Of a DNA stretch of 35,770 bases, positions 2,295 through 18,298 are shown in pieces. The stretch spans positions 1-35,770 of the forward strand of contig CAJBBN010000040.1 of assembly GCA_903951325.1 (NCBI GenBank), read 5' to 3'. The position numbers and the translations under genes were made by a program. The notes under the pieces were generated by a model, which had not been told where the DNA came from, ran no database searches, and was given only the letters and a program-made list of their open reading frames with translations. Every line of letters begins with the position of its first letter. The first letter of the stretch is position 1. The stretch comes from an uncultured bacterium (GTDB taxonomy: Bacteria > Bacteroidota > Bacteroidia > Sphingobacteriales > Sphingobacteriaceae).

Positions 2295-2380
2295 GTTGCT
2301 ATATTATTTCTAAAAGGCTTATTAAATAGGTATTGTAGCCTAATTTCTCCTAATTTTTTTTTATATTTATTTTGAAAAAA

Positions 2381-3124
2381 ATGGGAAATCCGAAAAACAT
2401 ACTCCTCGAAATTTGTGCTGCAAATTTTGCTTCTGCGCAAGCAGCTAGTTTAGCTGGTGCAGACAGAATTGAACTGTGTTCGGCTTTAGCAGTTGGCGGA
2501 TTAACACCTTCGCATGCTTTGCTCGAAGCGGTGCAGCATGCGTTTGCAATTCCGGTGCATGTTTTGGTTCGTCCAAGAGAAGGTGATTTTTTGTATTCTG
2601 ATGCGGAGTTTCAAATCATGCAAGAAGAAATTTTAAAAATCAAACAAATGGGTTTTGCTGGCGTAGTGTTTGGTATATTAAATGCCGATGCAACCATAGA
2701 TGAAAAAAGATGTGCAGCATTAGTCGCAATGGCAAAACCGATGCAACTTACTTTTCATCGTGCTTTCGACTTTGTAAGGCAAGCCAATGTAGCACTAGAA
2801 AAACTAATCGAATTAGGCTTTGATTATGTTTTAACCTCTGGTTTGAAAAGCACGGCCGAGTTGGGTTTAACGCAATTAACCGACTTAGTAGCCCAAGCAA
2901 ACAATCGTATTCAAATAATACCCGCTGCTGGTATCAACGAAAACAATGTTACAGCAATTTTACAAACAACAAAAGCCAATATTATTCATTGTTCATTAAG
3001 CGAAGAAGTGCCAAGTAAAATGCAAGTTAATGTTGGTCCTGATTTAGGATTTGTGAATGTAGTGTCGAGCGAAATAAAAATAAGAGCGGTCAAAAAAATA
3101 ATAACAACCATAAGCCATGCGTAA
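2381..3124 (+). CDS. cutC: CutC-family protein (annotated copper homeostasis; TIM barrel)
   Basis: ILLEICAANFASAQAASLAGADRIELCSALAVGGLTPS..., VHVLVRPREGDFLYS, TFHRAFDF, VLTSG. ORF track starts at a TTG (2372); ATG at 2381 is preferred. Confidence 0.9.
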   Translation: MGNPKNILLEICAANFASAQAASLAGADRIELCSALAVGGLTPSHALLEAVQHAFAIPVHVLVRPREGDFLYSDAEFQIMQEEILKIKQMGFAGVVFGILNADATIDEKRCAALVAMAKPMQLTFHRAFDFVRQANVALEKLIELGFDYVLTSGLKSTAELGLTQLTDLVAQANNRIQIIPAAGINENNVTAILQTTKANIIHCSLSEEVPSKMQVNVGPDLGFVNVVSSEIKIRAVKKIITTISHA

Positions 3125-5657
3125 ATTAGGCTCGATGTTGTTTTTTTTACTTTCGATTGTTAGCCTAGCAAATGTGCAGGCACAGTCCATTGTTGATTTA
3201 ACAAATGCAGCACCATGGTATTTTAAAGAATTCAATAATGCCGATTCGCAATGGCTGCAGGCTAAAGTGCCGGGTACCATTCACCAAGATTTATTAGCTC
3301 ATCAATTAATTGCAGATCCCTATTTATTAAATAACGAACAGCAGGCACAATGGCCAGCTCAAAAGGAATGGCTTTACCAAACCACCATTTTATTGACACC
3401 AGCCATGGCGGCTTATCAGCAAATTGATTTAGTTTTCGAAGGCTTAGACACTGATGCAGAAATTTCAATCAATGGAAAAGTAATAGCAAGTGTTAATAAT
3501 ATGTTTCGTGTTTGGAAATTCAATATTCGAAAGCAATTAAAAATAGGTAATAATCAGTTGCAGGTAAAATTTTTATCCAGCGAAAAAATCGCAGCTTCTG
3601 CATACGAAAAACTACAGCCTAAAATTCCATTAGATGAAAGAATCATGGTCCGTAAAGCAGCCTATCAATTTGGCTGGGATTGGGGCCCTCGTTTGGTTAC
3701 AGCAGGTATCTGTAAAAATGTGTATTTACATTGCTGGGATCAATTAAAAATAGCACACATTCAATATCAGCAGTTGCAAATAGACACCGTAATGGCCTGC
3801 TTAAATGCAAAAGTGTGTATCAATAGTCTTGTCGAACAAAATGTTAGCTATCAAATTATCGATAGTATCACCAAGCAAGTTTATGCAAGTAGTGAATTAA
3901 AATTAATGAAAGGGCAGCAATTTTTTAATATTCCCTTTACCATTAACAAGCCCAAGTTATGGTGGTGCAATGGTTTGGGAGCACCCAATTTATTAAATTT
4001 AACATTTAACTTGCAAAATAAAAATAATCAAATTTCAGAAAACACCCGCATAGGCTTGAGAAAAATCGAACTCATTCAACAAGCTGATCAAAAAGGCAAA
4101 AGTTTTTATTTCAAATTAAATGGGCTGTCTGTTTTTATGAAAGGTGCTAATTATATACCGCAAGATAATTTTATACCTCGGGTAAGTAGCGCGCAAACTA
4201 AAACTTTAATTCATCAAGCAAAAGCCGCAAACTTCAATATGTTAAGGGTTTGGGGCGGTGGCATCTACGAGAGCGATGCGTTTTATAACGCCTGCGACGA
4301 ATCTGGAATATTAGTTTGGCAAGATTTTATGTTTGCTTGTGGCTTAGTACCCGGAGACGCGGCTTTTGCTAATAATGTCAAACAAGAAATTGCCGATCAA
4401 CTTATTCGATTAAGAAACCATCCTTGTATTGCTTTGTGGTGTGGTAACAACGAAGTAGCAGAGGGATGGTCTAATTGGGGTTGGCAAAAACAATTTAATA
4501 TGAACGCTACAGATTCCATTCGAATTTGGTCCGATTATCAAAAAATATTTCATCAAATTATTCCATCGGTAATCGATAGCTTGAGCGATGGCATTGCTTA
4601 TTGGCCATCTTCGCCTCAATTTGGTTGGGGAAGAAAAGAAAGTTTACAATATGGTGATATTCATTATTGGGGAGTTTGGTGGGGCGAAGAACCTTTCGAA
4701 AAATACCAACAAAAAGTAGGTCGATTTGTATCCGAGTATGGCTTTCAATCTTTTCCAAGTAAAAGCACGCTCGAAAAATTTACGAACCTAAACGAACGAA
4801 AATTAAATTCGAGCACTATGCAAGCGCATCAAAAACATCCTAAAGGTTTTCAAATCATAGATCAGCAAATGGGCTTGTACTATCAAAAGCCCTCGGAGTT
4901 CGATACATATACTTACACGAGCCAAGTTTTGCAAGCAGAGGGCTTAAAAATAGCAATAGAGGCGCACCGTTCGGCTATGCCATATTGTATGGGTACTTTG
5001 TATTGGCAGTTCAACGATTGTTGGCCGGTGGTGTCTTGGTCGAGCAGCGATTATTATCAAGATAAAAAAGCAGCTTATTATTTTGTAAAAAAATGTTTTG
5101 CTACCAACATGTTGGCATTCAAAAAACAACAGGATTCTTTACAAGTTTGTTTAGTGAGTGATTCACTAAACGAAATGCAAGTCCAATTTAAATTTCGGGT
5201 AATGGATTTTACTGGAAAAAAAATCTTGGAAAACAATCAGTTGTTAAAGGTGGCGCCACAATCTGCTACTATGCTATTAAATAAATCCATCGCTTCGATT
5301 GTTTCTAACCATTCCTTGCAAAATTTAGTAGCTGTAGCAAGCATTCAAAAAGTCGATGGAAGTATAATTGATCAATATTATTATTTTGATACTGTTAAAA
5401 ATTTAGCCTTAAAAAAAGATACCATCCAACTGCAACAAACTAGGCAAAACAACCAAGTAGCCATTACTTTACTTTCTCCAACATTAAAAAAGAATGTACA
5501 ACTGGCTACAAATATATCTGGCGAATTTTCTGATAATTATTTTGATCTTTTACCCAATCAAACACAAATTATTTATTTCAAACCCGCTCAGCTACTGCCT
5601 TTGGAAAGTATTCCATTGACTACCAAATTTATCTATAATAAAGAATCGAAAAAATAA
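3117..5657 (+). CDS. Secreted beta-mannosidase, glycoside hydrolase family 2
   Basis: Signal peptide (..SLANVQAQ); GH2 mannosidase motifs VPGTIHQDL, MLRVWGGGIYE, acid/base WCGNNE, nucleophile VSEYGFQSFPS, LYWQFNDCWPVVSWSS. Overlaps cutC by 8 nt. Confidence 0.93.
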   Translation: MRKLGSMLFFLLSIVSLANVQAQSIVDLTNAAPWYFKEFNNADSQWLQAKVPGTIHQDLLAHQLIADPYLLNNEQQAQWPAQKEWLYQTTILLTPAMAAYQQIDLVFEGLDTDAEISINGKVIASVNNMFRVWKFNIRKQLKIGNNQLQVKFLSSEKIAASAYEKLQPKIPLDERIMVRKAAYQFGWDWGPRLVTAGICKNVYLHCWDQLKIAHIQYQQLQIDTVMACLNAKVCINSLVEQNVSYQIIDSITKQVYASSELKLMKGQQFFNIPFTINKPKLWWCNGLGAPNLLNLTFNLQNKNNQISENTRIGLRKIELIQQADQKGKSFYFKLNGLSVFMKGANYIPQDNFIPRVSSAQTKTLIHQAKAANFNMLRVWGGGIYESDAFYNACDESGILVWQDFMFACGLVPGDAAFANNVKQEIADQLIRLRNHPCIALWCGNNEVAEGWSNWGWQKQFNMNATDSIRIWSDYQKIFHQIIPSVIDSLSDGIAYWPSSPQFGWGRKESLQYGDIHYWGVWWGEEPFEKYQQKVGRFVSEYGFQSFPSKSTLEKFTNLNERKLNSSTMQAHQKHPKGFQIIDQQMGLYYQKPSEFDTYTYTSQVLQAEGLKIAIEAHRSAMPYCMGTLYWQFNDCWPVVSWSSSDYYQDKKAAYYFVKKCFATNMLAFKKQQDSLQVCLVSDSLNEMQVQFKFRVMDFTGKKILENNQLLKVAPQSATMLLNKSIASIVSNHSLQNLVAVASIQKVDGSIIDQYYYFDTVKNLALKKDTIQLQQTRQNNQVAITLLSPTLKKNVQLATNISGEFSDNYFDLLPNQTQIIYFKPAQLLPLESIPLTTKFIYNKESKK

Positions 5658-5663
5658 ATACCC

Positions 5664-8585
5664 ATGAAAAAAATTATCCTGTACTTTTTTTGTTTCCCCA
5701 TTTTGTTGGCTTCGGCACAAAAACAAACAACAAATTTAGCAAGTATGGTCAATCCATTTATCGGCACAGGAGGCCACGGGCATACCTTTCCAGGCGCTTC
5801 AAGTCCTTTCGGCATGGTGCAATTAAGCCCAGATACTCGATTAGATGGATGGGATGGATGCGGCGGTTACCATTACGATGATAGTATTATTTACGGTTTT
5901 TCTCATACGCATTTAAGCGGCACAGGTGTTTCGGATTACGGTGATATTTTATTGATGCCTAGTACCAATGCGGCAGTTGATTTATCAAATTATGCCTATG
6001 CGCAAAAATTTAGTCACCAAGCAGAGTCGGCACATGCGGGCTTTTATGAAGTACAATTAGCTAATCAAGTTAAAGTAGCACTGACCGCAACTTCTAGAGC
6101 AGGCTACCATCGTTACCAATTTCCAAATCAATCGTCTGTTAATTTGGTACTCAACTTAAAACACCGCGATCAAGTGATTGCATCAAGCTTAAAACAAATC
6201 AATGCATATGAAATAGAAGGAATGCGTCGTTCCAAAGCTTGGGCGAATGATCAACATGTTTATTTTGTGATGCGTTTTTCCAAGCCTATTCAAAGTATCC
6301 AATTAGCGAATCAACAAATAGTAAAAATTGGAGAAACTATTCAAAGTAATGATATCATATCACTTATAAATTTTCAGCAAGATCAAAATTCAACGCTAGA
6401 AGTTAAGGTTGGCATATCAGCGGTAAGTGAAGCAGGCGCTAGGCTCAATTTAGCAACAGAAATTGCGAACCAATCTTTTGAAAAAGTACTTGCTAAAGTG
6501 AACGCAAGTTGGAACAAAGAATTAGGTAAAATTACCATCAAAGATTCTCGTGTAAAATTAAAAAAGATTTTTTATACCGCCTTGTACCATGCCATGCTCA
6601 GCCCTAATGTTTACAATGATGTAGATGGTCAATACAGGGGAAGAGATTTGCAAATTCATCAATCCAAAGAATTCAATAATTATTCTGTTTTTTCATTATG
6701 GGATACTTATCGAGCAGCGCATCCTTTGTTAACAGTGATAGATCAAAAGAGAAGCAATGATTTTATTCAAACATTTATTCAACAAGCCGAACAAGGTGGC
6801 TTGCTTCCAGTATGGGAGTTAGCTGGCAACGAAACCAATTGTATGATTGGTTATCATTCCGTTTCGGTTATTGCCGATGCCTTTCTCAAAGGAATTCGTC
6901 AATATGATGTAGAGAAAGCATTTGAAGCGATGAAAAAATCTGCGAATCAAAACGAACTTTCTTTAAATGCTTATCGAAAATACGGATTTGTACCTGCAGA
7001 TATTGCTTCGGAGTCTGTTTCAAAAACGCTAGAATACGCTTACGACGATTGGTGTATTGCCCAAATGGCAAAGGCCTTAGGGCATCAAGCCGATTACGAT
7101 ATTTTTATTCAGCGTGCGCAATATTATAAAAATGTTTTTGATCAAGAGCGTGGTTTTATGCGTGCAAGAATTAATAATTCATGGATTAGTCCATTCAATC
7201 CTTACGAAGTTAATTTCAATTATACCGAAGCAAATGCTTGGCAATATTTATTTATGGTTCCTCAAGATATCAATGGATTAATGGATTTGATGGGTGGTAA
7301 AGAAAAATTTGCTACAAAATTAATGGATTTGTTCATGGCCGATTCCGCTACTACAGGAAGGGTACAAGCCGACATCACCGGATTAATAGGACAATATGCA
7401 CATGGCAACGAACCAAGTCATCACATGGCTTATTTGTTTAATGCTGCTGGGCAACCATGGAAAACACAAAGTTTAGTTAGCGTTATTTCAGAAGAAATGT
7501 ATCGTAATAATCCTGCTGGTTTAATCGGCAACGAAGATTGTGGTCAAATGTCTGCTTGGTATGTATGGTCTGCTATGGGGCTGTATCCGGTTACACCAGG
7601 CTCAGCCAATTATGAAATTGGTTCACCCATGTTTGAAGAAGTAACCATTCATTTAGAAAATGGTAAGCAGTTTATTATTAAAGCGAAAAAGAATGGTGAT
7701 TATGCTCAGTACATTCAGTCTGCTACTTTCAATCAACGCGAATTCAATCAAAGTCATATTTCGCATCAGTCAATAATGAATGGAGGTACGCTTGTATTTC
7801 AAATGGCTGATACTGCCAATAAAAAATGGGCTGTTGAAAATTATAATATAACTTCCATAAAAGATCAATTGATTACCGCTGTGCCTTATATAAAACAAGC
7901 CACTCGAACTTTTTATGATTCTACTTTAGTGGCTATGCAATGTGTGAGTTCGAATGCTAGTATTTACTATACCCTTAATGGAGATGTGCCAAGTGTAAAA
8001 TCAAATTTATATAGCAAACCTTTTTATATTCATCAAACAACGCCTATTAAAATGTTAGCCATTGCGCCAAAAGCTTTGCCTTCTAAAACAGTAGCGTCGC
8101 TGCATACTAAAATGATAGATCATCGAACGGTGCAATTGCAATTTCCATATGCGCCACAATATGCTGCCTCGGGTCCACAAACTTTAGTTGATTTTATTAC
8201 TGGAACGACTAGCTTTCAAACAGGCGCATGGCAAGGTTTTGAAGGAGTTGATTTAATTGCTACGGTAGATTTGGGAGAAATTAAAAACATTAAACAAATA
8301 GCGACTACCTTTTTGCAAGACCAAGGTTCTTGGATTTTTTTACCTAAAGAGGTGTCTTATGCTATTTCAACAGACGGCCAGCATTTTACAGCATTTGATG
8401 CAATTAATTATGATGCGGCAAAAGAGGATGCAAGTAAATTAATTCATGCATTTGTGAGAAGTTTTAATGTAACTAAAGTGAGGTACGTAAAAATGACCGC
8501 AAAAACTATTGGTCAATGTCCAAGCTGGCACTTAGGCGCTGGGGGCACTTCCTGGATTTTTGCAGACGAAATAGCTATTGAATAA
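5664..8585 (+). CDS. Secreted GH92 alpha-mannosidase with C-terminal chitobiase-C-like and F5/8 type C (discoidin-like) modules
   Basis: VNPFIGTGGHGHTFPGASSPFGMVQLSPDT, FSHTHLSGTG, WDTYRAAHPL, GNEPSHHMAYLFNAAGQPWKTQ, GNEDCGQMSAWYVWSAMGLYPVTPGS; signal peptide ending SAQ. Confidence 0.95.
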   Translation: MKKIILYFFCFPILLASAQKQTTNLASMVNPFIGTGGHGHTFPGASSPFGMVQLSPDTRLDGWDGCGGYHYDDSIIYGFSHTHLSGTGVSDYGDILLMPSTNAAVDLSNYAYAQKFSHQAESAHAGFYEVQLANQVKVALTATSRAGYHRYQFPNQSSVNLVLNLKHRDQVIASSLKQINAYEIEGMRRSKAWANDQHVYFVMRFSKPIQSIQLANQQIVKIGETIQSNDIISLINFQQDQNSTLEVKVGISAVSEAGARLNLATEIANQSFEKVLAKVNASWNKELGKITIKDSRVKLKKIFYTALYHAMLSPNVYNDVDGQYRGRDLQIHQSKEFNNYSVFSLWDTYRAAHPLLTVIDQKRSNDFIQTFIQQAEQGGLLPVWELAGNETNCMIGYHSVSVIADAFLKGIRQYDVEKAFEAMKKSANQNELSLNAYRKYGFVPADIASESVSKTLEYAYDDWCIAQMAKALGHQADYDIFIQRAQYYKNVFDQERGFMRARINNSWISPFNPYEVNFNYTEANAWQYLFMVPQDINGLMDLMGGKEKFATKLMDLFMADSATTGRVQADITGLIGQYAHGNEPSHHMAYLFNAAGQPWKTQSLVSVISEEMYRNNPAGLIGNEDCGQMSAWYVWSAMGLYPVTPGSANYEIGSPMFEEVTIHLENGKQFIIKAKKNGDYAQYIQSATFNQREFNQSHISHQSIMNGGTLVFQMADTANKKWAVENYNITSIKDQLITAVPYIKQATRTFYDSTLVAMQCVSSNASIYYTLNGDVPSVKSNLYSKPFYIHQTTPIKMLAIAPKALPSKTVASLHTKMIDHRTVQLQFPYAPQYAASGPQTLVDFITGTTSFQTGAWQGFEGVDLIATVDLGEIKNIKQIATTFLQDQGSWIFLPKEVSYAISTDGQHFTAFDAINYDAAKEDASKLIHAFVRSFNVTKVRYVKMTAKTIGQCPSWHLGAGGTSWIFADEIAIE

Positions 8586-8586
8586 T

Positions 8587-10314
8587 ATGAAAAAAAGAAT
8601 TTTAATTTTATTTTTTTCTGTTTTGTTTAGCTTTTTAGCTAATGCACAAACAGCCGTTAATTCGCAATGGTATAACGATGCTAAATTTGGCATTTTTGTG
8701 CATTATGGATTGTATGCGCAAATTGGTTATACCGAATGGGCGCAAAATCATTTCGAAATACAAGCAGCCGATTACGAAAAACTACAAAGCCAATTTGCAC
8801 CAAGCCAATTCAATGCCAATCAATGGGTTCAATTATTTATGGAAGCTGGTGCAAAATACCTTGTTTTTACGGCTAAACACCACGAAGGGTTTTCGATGTA
8901 TCAATCAAAATATACCGATTTCAATTCTTTTAAAAGCCCATACAGCATTGACTTTCTGGCGCAATTAAGTGAAGCTTGTTTACAAAAGAAAGGTTTGCCT
9001 TTTGGGGTATATTATTCGGTTATGGATTGGCATCATCCCGATTATTTACCGCGTCGCTATTTTGATAATCGACCAAAGGAATTAGCAAATACAAATAACT
9101 ATAAACTATTTTTTAAAAATCAAGTATCCGAAATAATCGATCGCTATCAACCCTCATTATTGTGGTTTGATGGTGAATGGGAAAATACGCACGATAGTTT
9201 AGAAAGTGTAGCGCTCGATCAAATGATTCGTGATAAAAATCCAAGTATTTTAATCAATAACCGATTGAGTAGGTATGTAAAAGGAGATTTTAAAACCCCC
9301 GAAAATGCAGTGCCTGCAACAGGACTTAAAAGCGAAGATGGCAAACCCGTAAATTGGGAATTATGTTATACCATCAACGATAGCTGGGGCTATGATCCAT
9401 ACAGTACAGAGTTTAAGTCGGCTAGAGGCCTTATACGATTGCTAGTTGATATTTGTTCAAAAGGAGGCAACTTATTGCTCAATGTAGGGCCTAAACCCGA
9501 TGGCAGTATACAATCCGAATTTCAAGAAAGATTATTGGCTATGGGTAAATGGTTAAAAGAAAATGGAAATGCCATTTATGGAACCAAAGCCAGCATCTTC
9601 GAACAATTACCATTTTATGGTGCAAGTACCACTAAAGGAAACACCATTTATTTGCATGCTTTTTTAATGCCATCGAATCGTCAATTGGCTATGCCACTAT
9701 TGAAAAATAACATCACCAAGGTTTACCATCTTGCATCTAAAAAAGAATTACCCTATCATATTTCAAACAACCAATATATCATAGATTGTAATGGAATTAA
9801 AATTGATGATGCTGCAACCGTTATTGCCGTTGAGACTGCAGGCCTACCCGAATTAAAATCGCAATTCCCTTTATATGCTGCTAATCAAACCATCGACTTA
9901 TTGCCAGAGACAGCAAGCTTTGATCCGATGACTAAAAAAGAAAATATGTTGGTGCAATATTTTGATAAAATGTTATTAAAAAAATGGAATCAACAAAACG
10001 CTTTAAATAATATTCAATGGCATTTTTCGATTTCCAAACCAACAATTTACGACGTATATATTAAAGCGGCAAGTGCCAACGAATTAAAAGGAAATATATC
10101 AGCTAACTTACAAATAGATAGTACGCGTAATTTACTTTTCGAAATTCCAGCCCGAACGGCTTATACCTATACCAATGCTTATATGTACAAACCAATATAC
10201 ATAGGCCAAATAACCATAAACAAAGGGTTTAACGACATCAAATTAAAAGTGTTACCTAAAGCTGGTCAAGAACTCGTATTCGAAAAAATCACATTTATTC
10301 CACATCAAAAATAA
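8587..10314 (+). CDS. Secreted GH29 alpha-L-fucosidase
   Basis: WYNDAKFGIFVHYGLYA, YLVFTAKHHEGFSMYQSKYTDFNS, LLWFDGEW (nucleophile region), GGNLLLNVGPKPDGSI; signal peptide ending LANAQ. ATG at 8587 preferred over TTG at 8578. Confidence 0.95.
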   Translation: MKKRILILFFSVLFSFLANAQTAVNSQWYNDAKFGIFVHYGLYAQIGYTEWAQNHFEIQAADYEKLQSQFAPSQFNANQWVQLFMEAGAKYLVFTAKHHEGFSMYQSKYTDFNSFKSPYSIDFLAQLSEACLQKKGLPFGVYYSVMDWHHPDYLPRRYFDNRPKELANTNNYKLFFKNQVSEIIDRYQPSLLWFDGEWENTHDSLESVALDQMIRDKNPSILINNRLSRYVKGDFKTPENAVPATGLKSEDGKPVNWELCYTINDSWGYDPYSTEFKSARGLIRLLVDICSKGGNLLLNVGPKPDGSIQSEFQERLLAMGKWLKENGNAIYGTKASIFEQLPFYGASTTKGNTIYLHAFLMPSNRQLAMPLLKNNITKVYHLASKKELPYHISNNQYIIDCNGIKIDDAATVIAVETAGLPELKSQFPLYAANQTIDLLPETASFDPMTKKENMLVQYFDKMLLKKWNQQNALNNIQWHFSISKPTIYDVYIKAASANELKGNISANLQIDSTRNLLFEIPARTAYTYTNAYMYKPIYIGQITINKGFNDIKLKVLPKAGQELVFEKITFIPHQK

Positions 10315-10321
10315 TCTACCG

Positions 10322-12622
10322 ATGAAAAAATATATAGTCTTATTTTTTATAATTAATATTTCGCCTCTTTGGATTCTTGCACAACAAAGCTCCATAGCAA
10401 TTCAAATCATTCCTGCGCCACAACAATTAATACGCAGTGAAGGGCAATTTTTTTTTAATGAGCATACGCAAATAGCTTTTGACCAAGCCAATGCTGAATT
10501 AAAAAACACAGCACTTTATTTGCAACATTTTTTGCAAGAAGCAACGCATTTACCTTTTAAGATAGCTACTAAAAATGCGCCCGAAAATAATGTCATTTAC
10601 TTAGGTGTGGCAAGTAATTTTGTTGCTAATACTTCTGAAAATAAGCAACTGAGTGCAGAAGCCTATCAATTAATTATTAAAAATAAAAGCATCAGTATCA
10701 CTGGGAAGAGCATCGCCGGCGTATTTTACGGATTTCAAACCCTCCGACAATTATTGCCGGCAACAATAGAAAATAAAGGGATTGTGAAATCATTAAACAC
10801 CTGGTCTTTGCCCTGCTTAAGCATTTTTGATTATCCAACATTTGCTTGGCGCGGACTAAATTTAGATTGTTGTAGACATTTCATGGACAAAGCTTTTATA
10901 CTTCATTATCTAGATGTATTAGCTTATTACAAAATGAATAAATTTCATTGGCATTTAACCGAAGATCAAGCTTGGCGAATAGAAATAAAAAAATATCCAA
11001 AACTTACCTCTGTTGGTGCTTTTAGAAAAGAAAAAGAAGGCAATATTTATGGTGGATTTTATACCCAAGCAGACATCAAAGAAGTGGTGGCCTATGCTGC
11101 CAAATTAAACATCGAAGTTATTCCAGAAATCGAAATGCCAGGCCATTCTATGGCTGCTATTGCTGCTTATCCTGGGCTTTCTTGCACTAAAGCACCACTT
11201 GCGGTTGCAAATACCTGGGGTGTTTTTAAAGACATCTATTGTGCAGGTAGCGATAGCACATTTATCTTTTTAGAAAATGTATTAACAGAAGTGTTTGCAT
11301 TATTTCCTTCTAAATATATTCATATAGGTGGAGACGAAGCACCTAAATATCGTTGGGAAAATTGCGCAGCTTGTCAACTAAGAATGCAAAACGAAAAACT
11401 CAAAGATGCGCACGAATTACAAAGTTATTTTATCAAACGAATGGAGAAATTTGCCAACACGAATGGTAAAAAAATAATTGGTTGGGATGAAATTTTAGAA
11501 GGAGGTTTAGCCCCTAATGCAACGGTGCAATCGTGGAGAGGAGTAGAAGGTGCAATAGCTGCAGTTAATTCGCAACACGATGCCATTGTATCGCCAACCA
11601 GTCATTGTTATTTTGATTATTCTTTAAAGTCCATTGATTTAGCTAAAGTTTATAGTTTTAATCCAATACCAGCAGGCATTTCGGCCGAAAACGAAAAGTA
11701 TATTTTAGGTGGAGAATGTAATATGTGGACCGAAAAAGCACCACAAAACTTAGTCGATTCGAAAGTATTTCCACGCTTATTGGCTTTATCCGAAGTTTTA
11801 TGGACCAATCCAATGCCCCGCAATTTTGAAGCATTCAATCAAAGAGTGGAGTCGCATTATCCTCGCTTAACCGCATTGGGTATTCAATATGGTTTTGATA
11901 AACAAGCCATCACTTTTTCGATTCAAGCAAATCCAATGGCTAAAGCTTTTCAAGTGGAATTAATTCCTGCCCAAGCCGATTTAAAAATCTTATATACTTT
12001 AGATCAATCGCTGCCACAAATTGGAAATCCAAAGGCTATGCCATATCAGAAAGCTATTCAATTACAACAAGCTGGCATTTTAAAAGCGGCGATACAACAA
12101 ACAGATACCAATCAATTAGAAGTCTTCAGCCGTCAATTCGATATTCACCAAGCCATCGCCAAGCCATGTACAATCAAAGTTAAGCCTAGCGATAGTTATG
12201 CAGCCAATGGCGCTAATTCCTTAGTCGACGGGCTCATTGGTTCGATTGATTTTCATGATGGACTTTGGTTAGGGTTTCAGCAAAATAATTTAGAAGCCAT
12301 CATAGACTTAGGAGAAAATAAAAAAATCAACAGCATACAAACTCATTTTTTACAAAGTATGCCTTCTTGGATTTTATTTCCCGAAAGCGTTTCCCTATAT
12401 ACTTCGAGCGATGGCATTCAATTTAAATTATACAAAGTGATTGAGAATAAATTTCCTCAAAATGTGAGCGAAACAAGTATGCAAAACTTTACCTTCGATT
12501 TGTCAAATACAGCCACACGTTATATTAAAGTGATTGCTAAAAAAGTTGATAAATGTCCCGAATGGCACGAAGCGGCTGGGAGTGAGGCTTGGTTGTTTGT
12601 AGATGAAATTAGTATATATTAA
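10322..12622 (+). CDS. Secreted GH20 beta-N-acetylhexosaminidase with C-terminal chitobiase-C-like and F5/8 type C modules
   Basis: AWRGLNLDCCRHFMDK, YYKMNKFHWHLTEDQAWRIEIKKYP, EIEMPGHSMAAIAAYP, IHIGGDEAPKYRW (catalytic DE), CNMWTE; signal peptide ending LAQ. Confidence 0.95.
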   Translation: MKKYIVLFFIINISPLWILAQQSSIAIQIIPAPQQLIRSEGQFFFNEHTQIAFDQANAELKNTALYLQHFLQEATHLPFKIATKNAPENNVIYLGVASNFVANTSENKQLSAEAYQLIIKNKSISITGKSIAGVFYGFQTLRQLLPATIENKGIVKSLNTWSLPCLSIFDYPTFAWRGLNLDCCRHFMDKAFILHYLDVLAYYKMNKFHWHLTEDQAWRIEIKKYPKLTSVGAFRKEKEGNIYGGFYTQADIKEVVAYAAKLNIEVIPEIEMPGHSMAAIAAYPGLSCTKAPLAVANTWGVFKDIYCAGSDSTFIFLENVLTEVFALFPSKYIHIGGDEAPKYRWENCAACQLRMQNEKLKDAHELQSYFIKRMEKFANTNGKKIIGWDEILEGGLAPNATVQSWRGVEGAIAAVNSQHDAIVSPTSHCYFDYSLKSIDLAKVYSFNPIPAGISAENEKYILGGECNMWTEKAPQNLVDSKVFPRLLALSEVLWTNPMPRNFEAFNQRVESHYPRLTALGIQYGFDKQAITFSIQANPMAKAFQVELIPAQADLKILYTLDQSLPQIGNPKAMPYQKAIQLQQAGILKAAIQQTDTNQLEVFSRQFDIHQAIAKPCTIKVKPSDSYAANGANSLVDGLIGSIDFHDGLWLGFQQNNLEAIIDLGENKKINSIQTHFLQSMPSWILFPESVSLYTSSDGIQFKLYKVIENKFPQNVSETSMQNFTFDLSNTATRYIKVIAKKVDKCPEWHEAAGSEAWLFVDEISIY

Positions 12623-12632
12623 AATATATCAT

Positions 12633-15251
12633 ATGCGTATTAGGATCTTATTTTTTTTGATTTATTGCATGTTTGCAGCTTCGGCTTGCCAAAACGAGAT
12701 GCATTTAATTACCGATGCCAACTTTTTAGCGAAAGTAGATAGTCAGTTTCAAAAGCAAAAAGCGCTCTGCACAAATAAAGATTCGGCACTCTTTCATGTA
12801 TTTAATAAATCCTTAAGTCCTTTTGAAAACGAGGCTTTGAAGTTTTTATATGCGTATATGCCCTTGTCTGATTTAGCAGATTACGATGGCGAATTTTATT
12901 TGAAAAATATACAATCATCTGCACAAGCAAAATTGACCATGCCATGGTCTGAAAAAATACCGGAAAATATTTACCGACATTTTGTATTGCCCATTAGAGT
13001 GAATACCGAAACGCTAGATACAGCTCGTATAGTTTTTTATCAAGCACTCAAAGATAGGGTAGCCGGCTTATCCATGGAAGCAGCCGTTTTGGAGGTGAAC
13101 CACTGGTGCCACGAAAAAGTTATTTACCGTTCTACAGACGATCGTACTTCCTCTCCTTTAAATTGTGTAAAAACTACTTTTGGTAGGTGCGGCGAAGAAT
13201 CGACTTTATTGGTTACTGCGTTGCGTTCGGTTGGTATTCCAGCTCGTCAATGTTATACACCCCGTTGGGCGCATTGCGACGACAACCATGCTTGGGTAGA
13301 AGCATGGGTAGATGGAACATGGAAATATTTAGGCGCCTGCGAACCCGAAGCGGAATTAAATAAAGGATGGTTTACGGGCCCATCTAAAAGGGCTATGTTG
13401 GTTAATACCACTGTATTTGGTGATTATCAAGGACCCGAAGCGGTTTTAGAAAAAACGCCTTGGTATACCAAAATAAATGTTTTATCAAATTATACGAAAA
13501 CAAAAAAAATAGTTGTTCAAGTTATTGATCAACAAAATCAACCAATTGAAAATGCGAATGTGGCTTTTAAACTGTATAACTATGCGGAGTTTTATAGTTT
13601 AAGTAATCAACTAACCGATAAAAATGGTTTTTGTAATTTCGAAACGGGCTTTGGCGATTTATTAATTTGGGCTAGCAAAGGGGATGCCTATTATTATCAA
13701 AAAATTACAGTAGCCAATACCGATACATTGTTCTTGTCAATTGCGAATAAACCGGTTTTTATGAGTACTCATTTTACCCCTCCGGCAGACACCTATCAAG
13801 AACCTAAAACAGCTAATCCAAACCAAACTAAACTATCGCAAAGATTAAAACAAGAAGATTCGCTAAGAGCCAATCAATTAAGTACTTTCCCAGATAGTGC
13901 TCAAATAAAAAATTGGGCATTAAAAAATAATTTACCAGTCGAACAAAGTGTTCGGTTTATTACTTTATCGGCAGGAAACTACCAAACTATTCAAGCATTT
14001 TTACTCAGCTACAGTAAATACCAAGATTGGAAATTTGAATTACTTCAGCAAATATCAGAAAAAGATTTAAGAGACATTTCTTTATTAACTTTATTAGATC
14101 ATTTAAATAATAGTACTTCGTTAGCAGTATTAAATCCTCGAATAGCAAACGAAATGTCTTCGGCCTACAAAGCTTATTTTCAACAACATTTCGACACACA
14201 ATTTCAACAAAAATCTAAAACAGATATTTCTTTTTTAGTGCAATGGTTTCAACAAAATATCCAAATCGAAAAGCAAGCCAATTATTATAATATACCCATG
14301 AGCCCCATTGGTGTGATACAACTTAAACATGCCGATATACAATCGAGAAATATTTTATTTGTGGCTATGTGCAGGAGCTTTGGAATACCGGCACGCATTG
14401 ATCCGGAATATGCTCAAGTCCAAGTAAAATCTAATGATCAGCTTAATTGGCAAACAATTAATTTTGAAAAAACAAGTAATGAAATTGCTGCTAATGCTAC
14501 ACTTAAATTAATTTACCAAAACCCTGCTGCAATTGAACTGCAATACGGATTAAATTTTAGCATTGCTAAAATTAGTAATGGTATAGCACAAACTATTAAT
14601 TTCGAAAACAATCCCATCTTCGCACAATTTCCTGCAAATCTATCATTAACACCAGGAAACTATATCGTTATTACAGGCAATCGATTAAGCGATGGAACTG
14701 TTTGTAGCAATATATATCCTGTAACTTTAACGGCTAATCAATCGGTAATTCTCCCAATGGAATTGTTTATTCCTAAGGCTGAAAATAAAATGCTGGGCAG
14801 TATAGATGCCAAACACCAAGTGTTAATCAATCAACAATATAAAAGCATTGCGAGTTTTAAAAATACAAATGGCTTGGCCATATTGTGTTTAGATTTACCA
14901 GCAGAACCATCCAAGCATGTCATTGTAGAGCTACAATCCTTAAAACAGCAATGGCAGGCTATGCAATTTCCGCTCTTAGTATTGTTGCCCCAAGAAAGCA
15001 AACTGCAAGACATCAAGCAAAAATACCTAGCTTTTTTTCCTGAAAATACCTCATTTGTAATAGATACAGGATTTGCCGTTCAACAAAGCCTAAAAATGGT
15101 AAAAAGTAAAACAAATGCCCCCTTATTGATGTTGATTAATACAAAAGACCAAATAAAGTTTATCTCTGCTGGTTATGCCATTGGCAATATCGATTTAATG
15201 ATTCAATCGATGCAAGCAGAACTGCTTTGTTTAAAAAACTGTACAAAATAA
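12633..15251 (+). CDS. Multidomain lipoprotein: transglutaminase/PNGase-superfamily domain, Ig/CnaB-like domain, second degenerate TG-like domain, C-terminal thioredoxin-like domain
   Basis: Lipobox MRIRILFFLIYCMFAASAC-QN; TG core SSPLNCVKTTFGRCGEESTLLVTALRSVGIPARQCYTPRWAHCDDNHAWVEAWVDGTWKYLGACEPEAELNKGW; repeat-like DIQSRNILFVAMCRSFGIPAR; C-terminal NAPLLMLINTKDQIKFISAGYAIG. ATG at 12633 preferred because it places the lipobox correctly. Confidence 0.85.
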   Translation: MRIRILFFLIYCMFAASACQNEMHLITDANFLAKVDSQFQKQKALCTNKDSALFHVFNKSLSPFENEALKFLYAYMPLSDLADYDGEFYLKNIQSSAQAKLTMPWSEKIPENIYRHFVLPIRVNTETLDTARIVFYQALKDRVAGLSMEAAVLEVNHWCHEKVIYRSTDDRTSSPLNCVKTTFGRCGEESTLLVTALRSVGIPARQCYTPRWAHCDDNHAWVEAWVDGTWKYLGACEPEAELNKGWFTGPSKRAMLVNTTVFGDYQGPEAVLEKTPWYTKINVLSNYTKTKKIVVQVIDQQNQPIENANVAFKLYNYAEFYSLSNQLTDKNGFCNFETGFGDLLIWASKGDAYYYQKITVANTDTLFLSIANKPVFMSTHFTPPADTYQEPKTANPNQTKLSQRLKQEDSLRANQLSTFPDSAQIKNWALKNNLPVEQSVRFITLSAGNYQTIQAFLLSYSKYQDWKFELLQQISEKDLRDISLLTLLDHLNNSTSLAVLNPRIANEMSSAYKAYFQQHFDTQFQQKSKTDISFLVQWFQQNIQIEKQANYYNIPMSPIGVIQLKHADIQSRNILFVAMCRSFGIPARIDPEYAQVQVKSNDQLNWQTINFEKTSNEIAANATLKLIYQNPAAIELQYGLNFSIAKISNGIAQTINFENNPIFAQFPANLSLTPGNYIVITGNRLSDGTVCSNIYPVTLTANQSVILPMELFIPKAENKMLGSIDAKHQVLINQQYKSIASFKNTNGLAILCLDLPAEPSKHVIVELQSLKQQWQAMQFPLLVLLPQESKLQDIKQKYLAFFPENTSFVIDTGFAVQQSLKMVKSKTNAPLLMLINTKDQIKFISAGYAIGNIDLMIQSMQAELLCLKNCTK

Positions 15252-15252
15252 C

Positions 15253-16038
15253 ATGAATGCACATTTCGACACTTTAAATCAAAAAATTGAACCACTTAGG
15301 GGGCAGATTATTCAACATGCTTTATACCAAGAAATAAATAATCTATCCGACTTGCAAATTTTCATGAAATACCATGTATTTGCTGTTTGGGATTTCATGT
15401 CATTATTAAAATCACTTCAAATTAATTTAACCTGTGTAGAAACACCGTGGTTGCCAGTTGGTAATGCAGACACTCGTTTTTTAATTAACGAAATTGTAGT
15501 AGGAGAAGAGTCGGATGTAGATCAAAATGGGAATAGAACCAGTCATTTTGAATTATACTTATCGGCTATGAAGCAAGCTGGCGCTAATACACAACAAATC
15601 AACGATTTTATCGATAATTTAAAAATTTATAAAAGTTTAACCTTAGCATTCGAACATGCCAATGTGCCGGATGCTATTCGTTCATTTGTGGAGCATACTT
15701 TTTCGATTGTCAATTCAAACGAATCTTATTTACAAGCAGCTGTTTTTACATTTGGCCGCGAAGATTTAATTCCAGCCATGTTTTTAAGTATGGTTAATAA
15801 TTTTTCGGTAGAAGAATCTCAAAAAGCCGAAATTTTTAAATATTATTTAGAAAGACATATTGAAATAGATGGCGATCATCACAGTCATTTAGCAATAGCC
15901 ATGACCGATCAATTATGTGGCGACGACCAAAGTAAATGGACCGCATTAACAAAAGCAGTAATAGATTCGCTTGAAATGCGCATACAACTTTGGGATGCAG
16001 CCTATCAAGAAATAATTGCAGCAAAACAAAATGCATAA
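15253..16038 (+). CDS. DUF3050 family protein (heme-oxygenase-like fold)
   Basis: IFMKYHVFAVWDFMSLLKSLQ, NEIVVGEESD, SHFELYLSAMKQAGA, YYLERHIEIDGDHHSHLA; starts 1 nt after the upstream stop. Confidence 0.82.
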   Translation: MNAHFDTLNQKIEPLRGQIIQHALYQEINNLSDLQIFMKYHVFAVWDFMSLLKSLQINLTCVETPWLPVGNADTRFLINEIVVGEESDVDQNGNRTSHFELYLSAMKQAGANTQQINDFIDNLKIYKSLTLAFEHANVPDAIRSFVEHTFSIVNSNESYLQAAVFTFGREDLIPAMFLSMVNNFSVEESQKAEIFKYYLERHIEIDGDHHSHLAIAMTDQLCGDDQSKWTALTKAVIDSLEMRIQLWDAAYQEIIAAKQNA

Positions 16039-16068
16039 AAAAAGGCGCTTCTCGAAGCGCCTTTTTTT
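16037..16068. terminator. Bidirectional rho-independent terminator between convergent genes
   Basis: AAAAAAAGGCGCTT-CTCG-AAGCGCCTTTTTTT: perfect 14-bp symmetric stem with A and T tracts; converging DUF3050 (+) and TonB receptor (-). Confidence 0.92.
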
Positions 16069-16084
16069 ATTATAAACCGCTCAA

Positions 16085-18298
16085 TTAAAAATTTCCTTTA
16101 ATGGCAAATAATACATTTCTGCCCGATGCAGAAATTCCTGAACCAAATACACGGTAATTTTTATCGGAAATATTTTCGATTGCCATTTGTAAATCAATGT
16201 TTTTATTTACTTTATAATTTGCTCTTAAATTAAGTGTATGCCAAGCTGGTAAACCGTTTGCTGTAGCATAAATTAAATTATCTTCTCCAGCAACGTTATA
16301 ATCTTTTAATTTTTTTGCACCATTAAATAGGGTATAAAAACTAGCAGACCAATTTTGGTGATCGTAGTTTAAACTTGCTTTACCAAAAATAGGGGAAATA
16401 TGATCAAGCGGACTCGCAATTTCATTAGTTGTAATCATACCTTTGGTATAATTTACATTTGCAGAAAAACTAAATCCAGCTTTTAATTGATGTTCGATAT
16501 TTGCTGAAACACCATATATATAGGCTTTTCCTGCGTTTACATTTTGTTGTACTCTACATAAGGTATCACCATATAGTATTAACGCGCTTCCATTAAAAGT
16601 ACTGTTTTGTGTTACAATGGCATTGGTTAAATCTGTAAAGAAAGTATTGACTTTAAATTGAGCTACTGACCATTTTTTACTTAATCCTATTTCATAATTA
16701 ATAGCAAATTCTGGTTTTAAATCTTTATTTGGCACAATTAAAGTACCTATGGTAGTACTATTCCCAATGGTATCACCTTTAGTAGATTCAAACACCTTAG
16801 CTAAGTCATCTAAATTAGGTGTTCTAAAGCCAGAAGATATTAAGAAGCTAAATTTCCAATTATTATTTGTGCGATAGCATGCGCTTACATCTGCTACTAA
16901 GCTTTGATTGTTTTGCGTAATTTCTTTATATGGAAAGGAAAAAAATGTTTGGTCGTTGAAAGTGGCGCGAAGTTGAGAGTTAGTATATCTTACCCCTTCA
17001 TATATTGCTAATTTACCAAACGAAATTTCTTCCGAAAGGTAAATCGCATGCGAGCGTGTACTTGAGCCTCCGTCTGGATAGCGCGTATCTAAAGCACTTC
17101 GGCTTCCAGTAATTATATTTTCGGCATTTGCGGTAGATTTTACCTCGTTGAAATTACTTTCTAATCCATAACGAACGAAGCGATTTTTATATTTTTTTTC
17201 AAAATCCAAATTGATAGCATTTACCGTTACATTTTCGATTCGGTGGTTTAAGTTCGTTTTATTCCAGCCACGATTGTGACGGCTCTCTTGAATTGCTTGA
17301 TGTGAAAGGGTTATATTTCCTTGGTCATAAAACTTACCTTGTTTTAGTTGTGCTTGGTAAGATAATAACAATCTATTTTGTGGGCCATAATACCATTCTG
17401 CGCTTTTAAATACACCAGCACTATTTGTTTCCGTTAATCGATCATAACGAGGCACATTAGTGCTATTAGATAATTGAAAATTTACCACGTGACTCACATT
17501 TTTGTTTTGTTTCCAAACAACTTTTTGAATCAAATCGTATTGTTGATAGGCGCTTCCTTTTTGGATATTTGGATTATCATTCACTAGCATGGTGTCTTTG
17601 CCATTGATGCGTCCTTGGTAAAAGTTCCTTTTACCTAAATCGCCAATGGCCGCAGATCTATTGGCTCCCTGGCGTAAATCGCCAAAAGCAGATTGCGTAT
17701 AAGAAGTATAAGATCCCCATTTATTATTGGCCACACTTAAAGAAACTTGATTGGTTATTTCGTTGTTCGTGGTTGCGTATCTGCTAGCCACATTGCCTTT
17801 CACCAATATTTTTTTACTATTCGAAAATTCGGGAGATTTTGTATAGAAATGAATCACGCCACCTAATGCATCACTACCATATAATACAGATCCAGGACCG
17901 TTTACAATTTCTATTTTTTCTAAACTGAATTGATTTATGGTAATGCTATTTTGTAAATGGCCAGCACGATAAATGGCATTGTTCATGCGAACGCCATCTA
18001 CTACTAATAAAATTTTATTTGCTTCAAAGCCTCTCATAATAGGGCTTCCGCCACCTTGTTGACTTTTTTGTACTAATACTTGACCTGAATTTTGTAGTAA
18101 ATCGGCTGTGTTTGGCTGGTTTGCTTGCGCAATTTCTTTTGCACTTATAACACTCACCTGATTCGCAATAAGTTGAAGCGCCCATGGGAATTTTCTAGCA
18201 GCAATAACTGCTTCATCCATTTCCACTTTAATCAAAACCTGAGCCTGAAGTATGCTAAAATTCAATAGCATGCCCAAAGCCAATGTTATTTTTTTCAT
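16085..18298 (-). CDS. TonB-dependent outer membrane receptor, heme/hemoglobin receptor-like
   Basis: Plug motifs SGQVLVQKSQQGGGSPIMRGFEANKILLVVDGVRMNNAIYRAGHLQNSITI, VNGPGSVLYGSDALGGVIHF; barrel motif SGFRTPNLDDLAKVFES; C-terminal aromatic AIKGNF; no SusC-type N-terminal extension. Confidence 0.9.
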   Translation of the reverse strand: MKKITLALGMLLNFSILQAQVLIKVEMDEAVIAARKFPWALQLIANQVSVISAKEIAQANQPNTADLLQNSGQVLVQKSQQGGGSPIMRGFEANKILLVVDGVRMNNAIYRAGHLQNSITINQFSLEKIEIVNGPGSVLYGSDALGGVIHFYTKSPEFSNSKKILVKGNVASRYATTNNEITNQVSLSVANNKWGSYTSYTQSAFGDLRQGANRSAAIGDLGKRNFYQGRINGKDTMLVNDNPNIQKGSAYQQYDLIQKVVWKQNKNVSHVVNFQLSNSTNVPRYDRLTETNSAGVFKSAEWYYGPQNRLLLSYQAQLKQGKFYDQGNITLSHQAIQESRHNRGWNKTNLNHRIENVTVNAINLDFEKKYKNRFVRYGLESNFNEVKSTANAENIITGSRSALDTRYPDGGSSTRSHAIYLSEEISFGKLAIYEGVRYTNSQLRATFNDQTFFSFPYKEITQNNQSLVADVSACYRTNNNWKFSFLISSGFRTPNLDDLAKVFESTKGDTIGNSTTIGTLIVPNKDLKPEFAINYEIGLSKKWSVAQFKVNTFFTDLTNAIVTQNSTFNGSALILYGDTLCRVQQNVNAGKAYIYGVSANIEHQLKAGFSFSANVNYTKGMITTNEIASPLDHISPIFGKASLNYDHQNWSASFYTLFNGAKKLKDYNVAGEDNLIYATANGLPAWHTLNLRANYKVNKNIDLQMAIENISDKNYRVFGSGISASGRNVLFAIKGNF

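What the first reader, a model, noticed from the sequence alone, without database searches (positions are those of the whole stretch)
12633..15251. Candidate unrecognised N-glycan-releasing enzyme: PNGase/transglutaminase-fold lipoprotein in an exoglycosidase operon
Sequence shows RCGE(ES), GIPAR, NHAWVEAW and W-KYLGACE in one domain. Established knowledge: cytoplasmic PNGases (yeast Png1/human NGLY1) use a TG-fold Cys-His-Asp triad in a similar layout (RCGEW...R...HVWxE...RW....CE). The gene is the only operon member that could make the first endo cut (no GH18, GH85 or PNGase F-like gene is present), it follows GH2, GH92, GH29 and GH20 genes suited to trimming fucosylated/paucimannose N-glycans, and it has a lipobox so is predicted to be membrane-anchored outside the cytoplasm. 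Inference: it is an exported TG-fold amidase acting on glycan-Asn or glycopeptides, or a glycopeptide protease partner.
Basis: partly seen in the sequence, partly recalled or inferred. Interest (0 to 1): 0.8.

Follow-up and report, generated by a model that had tools for sequence, protein, structure and literature searches.

The report
Possible stand-in enzyme for glycosylasparaginase
A transglutaminase-like lipoprotein sits in a bacterial operon for eating protein-linked sugars exactly where related bacteria carry the enzyme that cuts the last sugar off asparagine, so it is probably an unrelated replacement for that enzyme, and it can be tested at the bench.

Summary
An 872-aa exported protein with a transglutaminase (TG) fold ends a tight operon (CutC–GH2–GH92–GH29–GH20–TG–DUF3050). 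Cys and His of the TG site are invariant in 86 homologues. The claimed Cys-His-Asp triad is not met: the Asp position is Gly in all 86. Sequence and fold searches place it in the TG superfamily only, with mouse PNGase second to an uncharacterised protein.

Genome comparison is stronger. In the window's family and class, the same operon kit (CutC, β-mannosidase, GH92, GH20) carries a Tat-exported glycosylasparaginase (AGA) beside CutC. The window's genus has no Asparaginase_2 gene at all and has the TG protein instead. In 117 Bacteroidales genomes TG and AGA never co-occur (0 of 31 TG genomes; weakly significant), and 30 of 31 TG genomes have CutC.

Best reading: an exported TG-fold amidase that replaces AGA, cutting GlcNAc–Asn after exoglycosidases have trimmed the glycan. 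Activity is untested, and peptide-bond cleavage is not excluded. The family has hundreds of members, including Bacteroides fragilis and Tannerella forsythia. I found no paper on its function.

The parts
12633..15251 (+). TG-fold lipoprotein, 872 aa; candidate GlcNAc-Asn amidase (ORF may also start at 12603)
13071..13322 (+). Transglut_core match, catalytic domain (aa 147-230)
   Evidence: domain model pLDDT 88, pTM 0.90
13188..13190 (+). C186 (C196 in ORF-track numbering), predicted nucleophile, invariant in 86/86
13287..13289 (+). H219, predicted catalytic His, invariant in 86/86
13332..13334 (+). G234, at the position of the triad Asp of PNGase and other TGs; Gly in 86/86
13509..13745 (+). 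Ig-like domain (aa 293-371), homologous to PDB 3e8v from Bacteroides fragilis
   Evidence: profile E 4e-30; Foldseek TM 0.94 to target
14205..14417 (+). second TG-like copy lacking the nucleophile Cys (pseudo-TG)
14862..15239 (+). thioredoxin-like C-terminal domain (aa 744-869) without a CxxC
   Evidence: 2m72 E 0.0012; ResA/DsbE-like Foldseek hits
2372..3124 (+). CutC-family protein, no signal peptide; first gene of the operon and main genomic partner of TG and AGA
3117..5657 (+). GH2 with mannosidase-type Ig domains, exported; likely beta-mannosidase
5664..8585 (+). GH92 alpha-mannosidase, exported
8578..10314 (+). GH29 alpha-fucosidase, exported; not detected between GH92 and GH20 in genus member G005
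10322..12622 (+). GH20 beta-N-acetylhexosaminidase, exported
15253..16038 (+). DUF3050 (haem-oxygenase-like), co-directional last gene; no match in the AGA loci, so probably not part of the pathway
16035..16070 (.). strong terminator-like hairpin (listed on - strand) closing the operon

Best explanation
The protein is an exported, membrane-anchored TG-fold cysteine amidase that hydrolyses the amide bond between the innermost GlcNAc and asparagine, once GH92, GH2, GH29 and GH20 have trimmed the N-glycan. C186 would attack the Asn side-chain amide, helped by H219. The substrate (GlcNAc-Asn amino acid, GlcNAc-peptide or a longer glycan) is not resolved. In this genus and in many Bacteroidales it is a non-orthologous replacement of glycosylasparaginase (AGA), and CutC acts somewhere downstream of both. 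Shown: fold superfamily, Cys/His conservation, export signal, operon, and replacement pattern. Inferred: the reaction, the substrate, the mechanism and the role of CutC.
For: Window's own family and class: in 31 genomes CutC lies within 300 bp of an AGA gene, and 4 more lie within 1.6 kb. Two of these AGAs tested match E. meningoseptica glycosylasparaginase at E about 1e-121 to 1e-125, and the AGAs carry Tat-type leaders. Their operons hold the same kit: L117 GH20-AGA-CutC-GH2-GH92, L113 GH20-AGA-CutC-GH2, L120 CutC-GH2-AGA-GH20. The window's genus has no Asparaginase_2 gene in 6 of 6 genomes. Five of the six have TG and CutC, and the sixth (99% complete) lacks all three. In 117 Bacteroidales genomes, nearly all from different families, TG with CutC is 30/31 against 16/86 without TG (p 4e-15). 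TG with GH92 is 30/31 against 45/86 (p 2e-6). AGA is 0/31 with TG against 11/86 without (p 0.04), and among CutC-positive genomes 0/30 against 6/16 (p 9e-4). An isoaspartyl-peptidase control shows no such effect, p 0.26. None of 80 TG loci holds AGA. CutC partners of TG and AGA are mixed on the CutC tree, with at least 3 changes forced by well-supported branches. The catalytic motif is almost invariant.
Against: The triad Asp is Gly in all 86 homologues, so another residue must do its job. The domain matches PNGase only at superfamily level, with TM about 0.3. No activity data exist. TG is an orphan in many Bacteroidales loci, for example beside DcuC in B. fragilis. Fisher tests ignore phylogeny, and the TG/AGA exclusion alone is weak (p 0.04). 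TG-GH92 proximity in the 117 genomes is only borderline (P 0.06).
Confidence: 0.62

Rival explanations
1. It is a glycopeptide protease or peptidase partner: the TG-fold cysteine site cuts peptide bonds of glycopeptides so that exoglycosidases or transporters can work, and loss of AGA is coincidental.
For: The closest solved TG fold is an uncharacterised 'putative cysteine protease' (3isr), and LapG, a TG-fold protease, also appears. The protein has Ig and thioredoxin-like domains and is an orphan in many genomes.
Against: It does not explain why AGA is missing from every TG genome sampled while CutC and GH92 are kept, or why TG takes the AGA place in the operon.
Confidence: 0.2
2. It is a TG-type PNGase acting first, on intact or partly trimmed glycans of glycoproteins.
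For: It shares R-C-G-E and x-x-C-E with mouse and yeast PNGase. Mouse PNGase is the second-best protein fold hit. It is an exported protein in an N-glycan operon.
Against: The triad Asp is absent. PNGases and TGs in general are about equally distant in fold. The enzyme it replaces acts on single-amino-acid GlcNAc-Asn (PMC6960285), not on glycoproteins.
Confidence: 0.12
3. It is a catalytically dead TG-fold binding protein, for example one that captures glycopeptides.
For: Gly replaces the catalytic Asp in 86/86; the second TG copy is clearly dead.
Against: C186, H219, E188, W221 and E223 and nearly all neighbours are invariant, which is typical of a working active site.
Confidence: 0.06

Closest known systems
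Glycosylasparaginase (AGA, EC 3.5.1.26; Elizabethkingia enzyme, PF01112)
   Same: Same genomic slot beside CutC and the N-glycan exoglycosidases; also exported; replaced one for one in the window's genus.
   Different: Unrelated fold and nucleophile (AGA self-cleaves and uses Thr); no sequence relation; the TG protein is about 870 aa and multidomain.
Cytoplasmic PNGase (yeast Png1, mouse/human NGLY1)
   Same: TG superfamily; Cys and His in register; shared R-C-G-E, H-x-W-x-E and x-x-C-E motifs.
   Different: Asp of the triad is Gly; exported; no PUB or PAW domain named by Pfam; weak overall similarity (profile E 0.004 to 0.025, TM about 0.3).
PNGase F superfamily of Bacteroidota (PNGase F, PNGaseL, BF0811)
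   Same: Exported N-glycan-releasing amidases of the same phylum, found in similar gene settings.
   Different: Different fold and acidic catalytic residues; no sequence relation.
Bacterial TG-superfamily proteins of unknown function such as PDB 3isr and the B. fragilis protein whose Ig domain is PDB 3e8v
   Same: 3isr is the closest solved TG domain; the 3e8v domain belongs to this very family.
   Different: 3isr keeps the Asp and lacks RCGE and CE; no function is known for either.

Membership tests
Transglutaminase superfamily | TG core fold with Cys and His in register | tested here: met
   Pfam PF01841 E 5e-26; aligned Cys and His; Foldseek hits to TGs
Transglutaminase superfamily | third triad residue Asp at W+4 (W..xD) | tested here: not met
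   G234 in 86/86; aligned with Asp of 2f4m, 1x3w and 3isr
Cytoplasmic PNGase (Png1/NGLY1) | specific sequence or fold similarity above other TGs | tested here: not met
   3isr scores better than PNGase by profile and by Foldseek
Cytoplasmic PNGase (Png1/NGLY1) | RCGE and x-x-C-E motifs around the active site | tested here: met
   alignments; absent from seven other Bacteroidota TG domains examined
Cytoplasmic PNGase (Png1/NGLY1) | release of N-glycans from glycopeptides | not testable with these tools
   needs an enzyme assay
Glycosylasparaginase (works like, not member) | PF01112 Ntn-hydrolase fold | tested here: not met
   no PF01112 match; no Asparaginase_2 in the window's genome
Glycosylasparaginase (works like, not member) | genomic slot next to CutC and the N-glycan exoglycosidases | tested here: met
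PNGase F superfamily | PNGase F catalytic domain | tested here: not met
   no Pfam hit other than Transglut_core and Big_1
Bacterial lipoproteins | signal peptide with lipobox Cys | tested here: inconclusive
   FAASAC has Ala, not Leu, at -3; lipobox-like motif in 56/86 relatives by a simple pattern

The most novel reading that the evidence does not exclude
TG protein and AGA are interchangeable GlcNAc-Asn amidases feeding a shared step, and CutC, long listed as a copper protein, is the enzyme for that step, for example acting on GlcNAc-amine or another product of the amide cut.
Probability: 0.2. Interest if true: 0.8.

Novelty: new variant of a known kind. Interest (0 to 1): 0.62.

Why it matters
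If true, a family of hundreds of uncharacterised Bacteroidota proteins, including ones in B. fragilis, Phocaeicola massiliensis and Tannerella forsythia, gains a function as a second, unrelated solution to the last step of N-glycan catabolism. It would also tie CutC, a conserved protein with an unsettled role, to protein-glycan breakdown, a link that can be tested directly.

Tried and rejected
(1) Literature for bacterial TG-type PNGase, for TG with glycosylasparaginase, and for CutC with N-glycan enzymes: nothing relevant found. (2) PNGase F, GH18 or GH85 in the operon: none. (3) GH92/GH20/GH29 as conserved neighbours across the family: only occasional, and TG-GH92 proximity in sampled genomes was borderline (3 seen, 0.9 expected, P 0.06). 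(4) Whole-protein Foldseek: dominated by mammalian TG multidomain hits with TM under 0.2, uninformative, so the catalytic domain was refolded alone. (5) GH125 as a specific marker: modest link, 9/31 against 8/86, p 0.015. (6) Isoaspartyl peptidase as a negative control: no association. (7) DUF3050 as a pathway member: no match in the AGA loci.

Full report
What is there. The ORF at 12603/12633-15251 is real. It encodes an 872-aa exported protein (from the 12633 ATG) with a lipobox-like FAASAC. Pfam finds Transglut_core at E 5e-26 and nothing else beyond a weak Ig match. A second TG-like copy at 14205-14417 has lost the nucleophile Cys: the family consensus there is AD..SR(D/N)I. AlphaFold2 with 44 homologues gives pLDDT 89. 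The order is signal, helical N-terminal part, TG domain, Ig domain (PDB 3e8v, from B. fragilis, is this domain of a homologue), pseudo-TG, beta domain, thioredoxin-like C-terminus without CxxC.

Operon. CutC (2372), GH2 (3117), GH92 (5664), GH29 (8578), GH20 (10322), TG (12633) and DUF3050 (15253) are co-directional, with gaps of -8 to +10 bp. A terminator-like hairpin follows DUF3050. A hairpin with a T-run is also visible by eye between glutamate dehydrogenase and CutC, though the terminator scan did not list it. The four glycosidases have signal peptides and CutC has none. The set is kept in the genus: G005 has CutC-GH2-GH92-GH20-TG-DUF3050, and G002, G004 and G001 show the same pieces on broken contigs.

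The active site. In 86 homologues C186, H219, R185, E188, R205, W221, E223, W230, C236 and E237 are invariant. Profile alignments to mouse and yeast PNGase and to 3isr put G234 on the catalytic Asp, and Gly is found in 86 of 86. The near-total conservation argues for a working site with another acid, perhaps E237 or D216/D217, but I could not inspect coordinates. RCGE and x-x-C-E are shared with PNGase and are missing from seven other Bacteroidota TG domains. Even so, 3isr, an uncharacterised protein, is closer than PNGase by profile (E 2e-6 against 4e-3) and by Foldseek, and all TM-scores are about 0.3. It is a TG-superfamily member and cannot be filed as a PNGase.

Family and neighbours. The genome scan found at least 586 loci; the best 80 are Bacteroidota, mostly Bacteroidales, including B. 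fragilis, P. massiliensis, T. forsythia, Dysgonomonas and Parabacteroides. The commonest neighbour is CutC: 28 of 80 loci, usually the gene just upstream. Alpha-mannosidases GH92, GH125 or GH38 lie within 10 kb in 9; these are the families that demannosylate N-glycans (PMC10154615). Many other loci look like orphans among housekeeping genes.

The replacement pattern. I searched 117 Bacteroidales genomes, nearly all from different families, for TG, CutC, GH125, GH92 and Asparaginase_2. TG is in 31, and 30 of these have CutC, against 16 of 86 without TG (p 4e-15). GH92 is in 30 of 31 against 45 of 86 (p 2e-6). Asparaginase_2 splits into an isoaspartyl-peptidase type and a shorter AGA type. The AGA type occurs in 11 genomes, none with TG (p 0.04). 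Among CutC-positive genomes it is 0 of 30 with TG and 6 of 16 without (p 9e-4). The isoaspartyl control shows no link (p 0.26). CutC with 'AGA or TG' is 36 of 46 against 6 of 71 (p 5e-15). These tests ignore phylogeny.

In the window's own relatives (129 genomes) TG exists only in the genus and in one Bacteroidales genome. AGA lies within 300 bp of CutC in 31 genomes and within 1.6 kb in 4 more, and 51 of 55 listed AGA genomes have CutC (the AGA list was cut off, so these are minimum counts). The window's genus has no Asparaginase_2 gene in any of 6 genomes. Five have TG and CutC, and the sixth, 99% complete, lacks all three. Twenty loci around CutC/AGA were fetched. The AGAs are Tat-exported by their leaders, two tested ones match Elizabethkingia glycosylasparaginase at E 1e-121 to 1e-125, and their neighbours are the window's kit: L117 GH20-AGA-CutC-GH2-GH92, L113 GH20-AGA-CutC-GH2, L120 CutC-GH2-AGA-GH20, L109/L110/L115 AGA-CutC-GH2. 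No TG locus contains AGA. On a CutC tree the TG-paired and AGA-paired CutCs are intermixed, with at least three changes forced by well-supported branches, so partners were swapped, or CutC was transferred, more than once. The closest relative outside the genus, L015, has GH2-GH92-GH20 upstream of TG.

How it most likely works. Exported GH92, GH2, GH29 and GH20 strip the glycan. What is left is GlcNAc on Asn. In the sister operons AGA cuts that amide; it acts on single-amino-acid GlcNAc-Asn (PMC6960285). The TG protein occupies this slot, is also exported, and has a cysteine active site of the superfamily that, in PNGase, cuts the same bond. This convergence is the core of the argument, and every step from 'slot' to 'reaction' is inference. 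Whether it prefers GlcNAc-Asn, GlcNAc-peptide or longer glycans is open; acting on peptides would also make AGA dispensable.

CutC. Its biochemical role is unsettled. In E. coli the cutC gene also holds the start of the sRNA MicL (PMC9438474), and my recollection that this explains its copper phenotype was not checked in a paper here. In Bacteroidota it follows AGA or TG, so a step after the amide cut is a reasonable, untested guess.

Verdict. Function remains to be shown by assay.

Noticed in passing
window 2372-3124; L102-L121; Bacteroidales genomes: CutC is tightly linked, by adjacency and by co-occurrence, to glycosylasparaginase or the TG protein and to GH92 across Bacteroidota (45 of 46 CutC genomes have GH92), suggesting a role in N-glycan catabolism rather than copper.
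   Followed up: partly
window 14205-14417: A second TG-like domain in the same protein has kept the fold signature but lost the nucleophile Cys in the whole family, a built-in pseudo-enzyme copy.
   Followed up: partly
window 15253-16038: DUF3050, a haem-oxygenase-like protein of unknown function, is the last gene of the operon and is kept in the genus, but has no match in the AGA operons.
   Followed up: partly
genome G459 C621:2014-2601: The only TG-bearing Bacteroidales genome of 31 with neither CutC nor GH92; the assembly is in 700 contigs, so this may be contamination or a real orphan.
   Followed up: no
L132 (G504:C378), L022: GH125-CutC-TG arranged as one unit: an alpha-1,6-mannosidase family joined directly to the pair.
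   Followed up: no
L008, L100: Distant Bacteroidota TG proteins of about 470-500 aa share the N-terminal 'FVLPYR..NE' region with this family but not the RCGE/CE motifs; function unknown.
   Followed up: no
window 16085-18298 (-): TonB-dependent haem/haemoglobin-type receptor, convergent with the operon.
   Followed up: no
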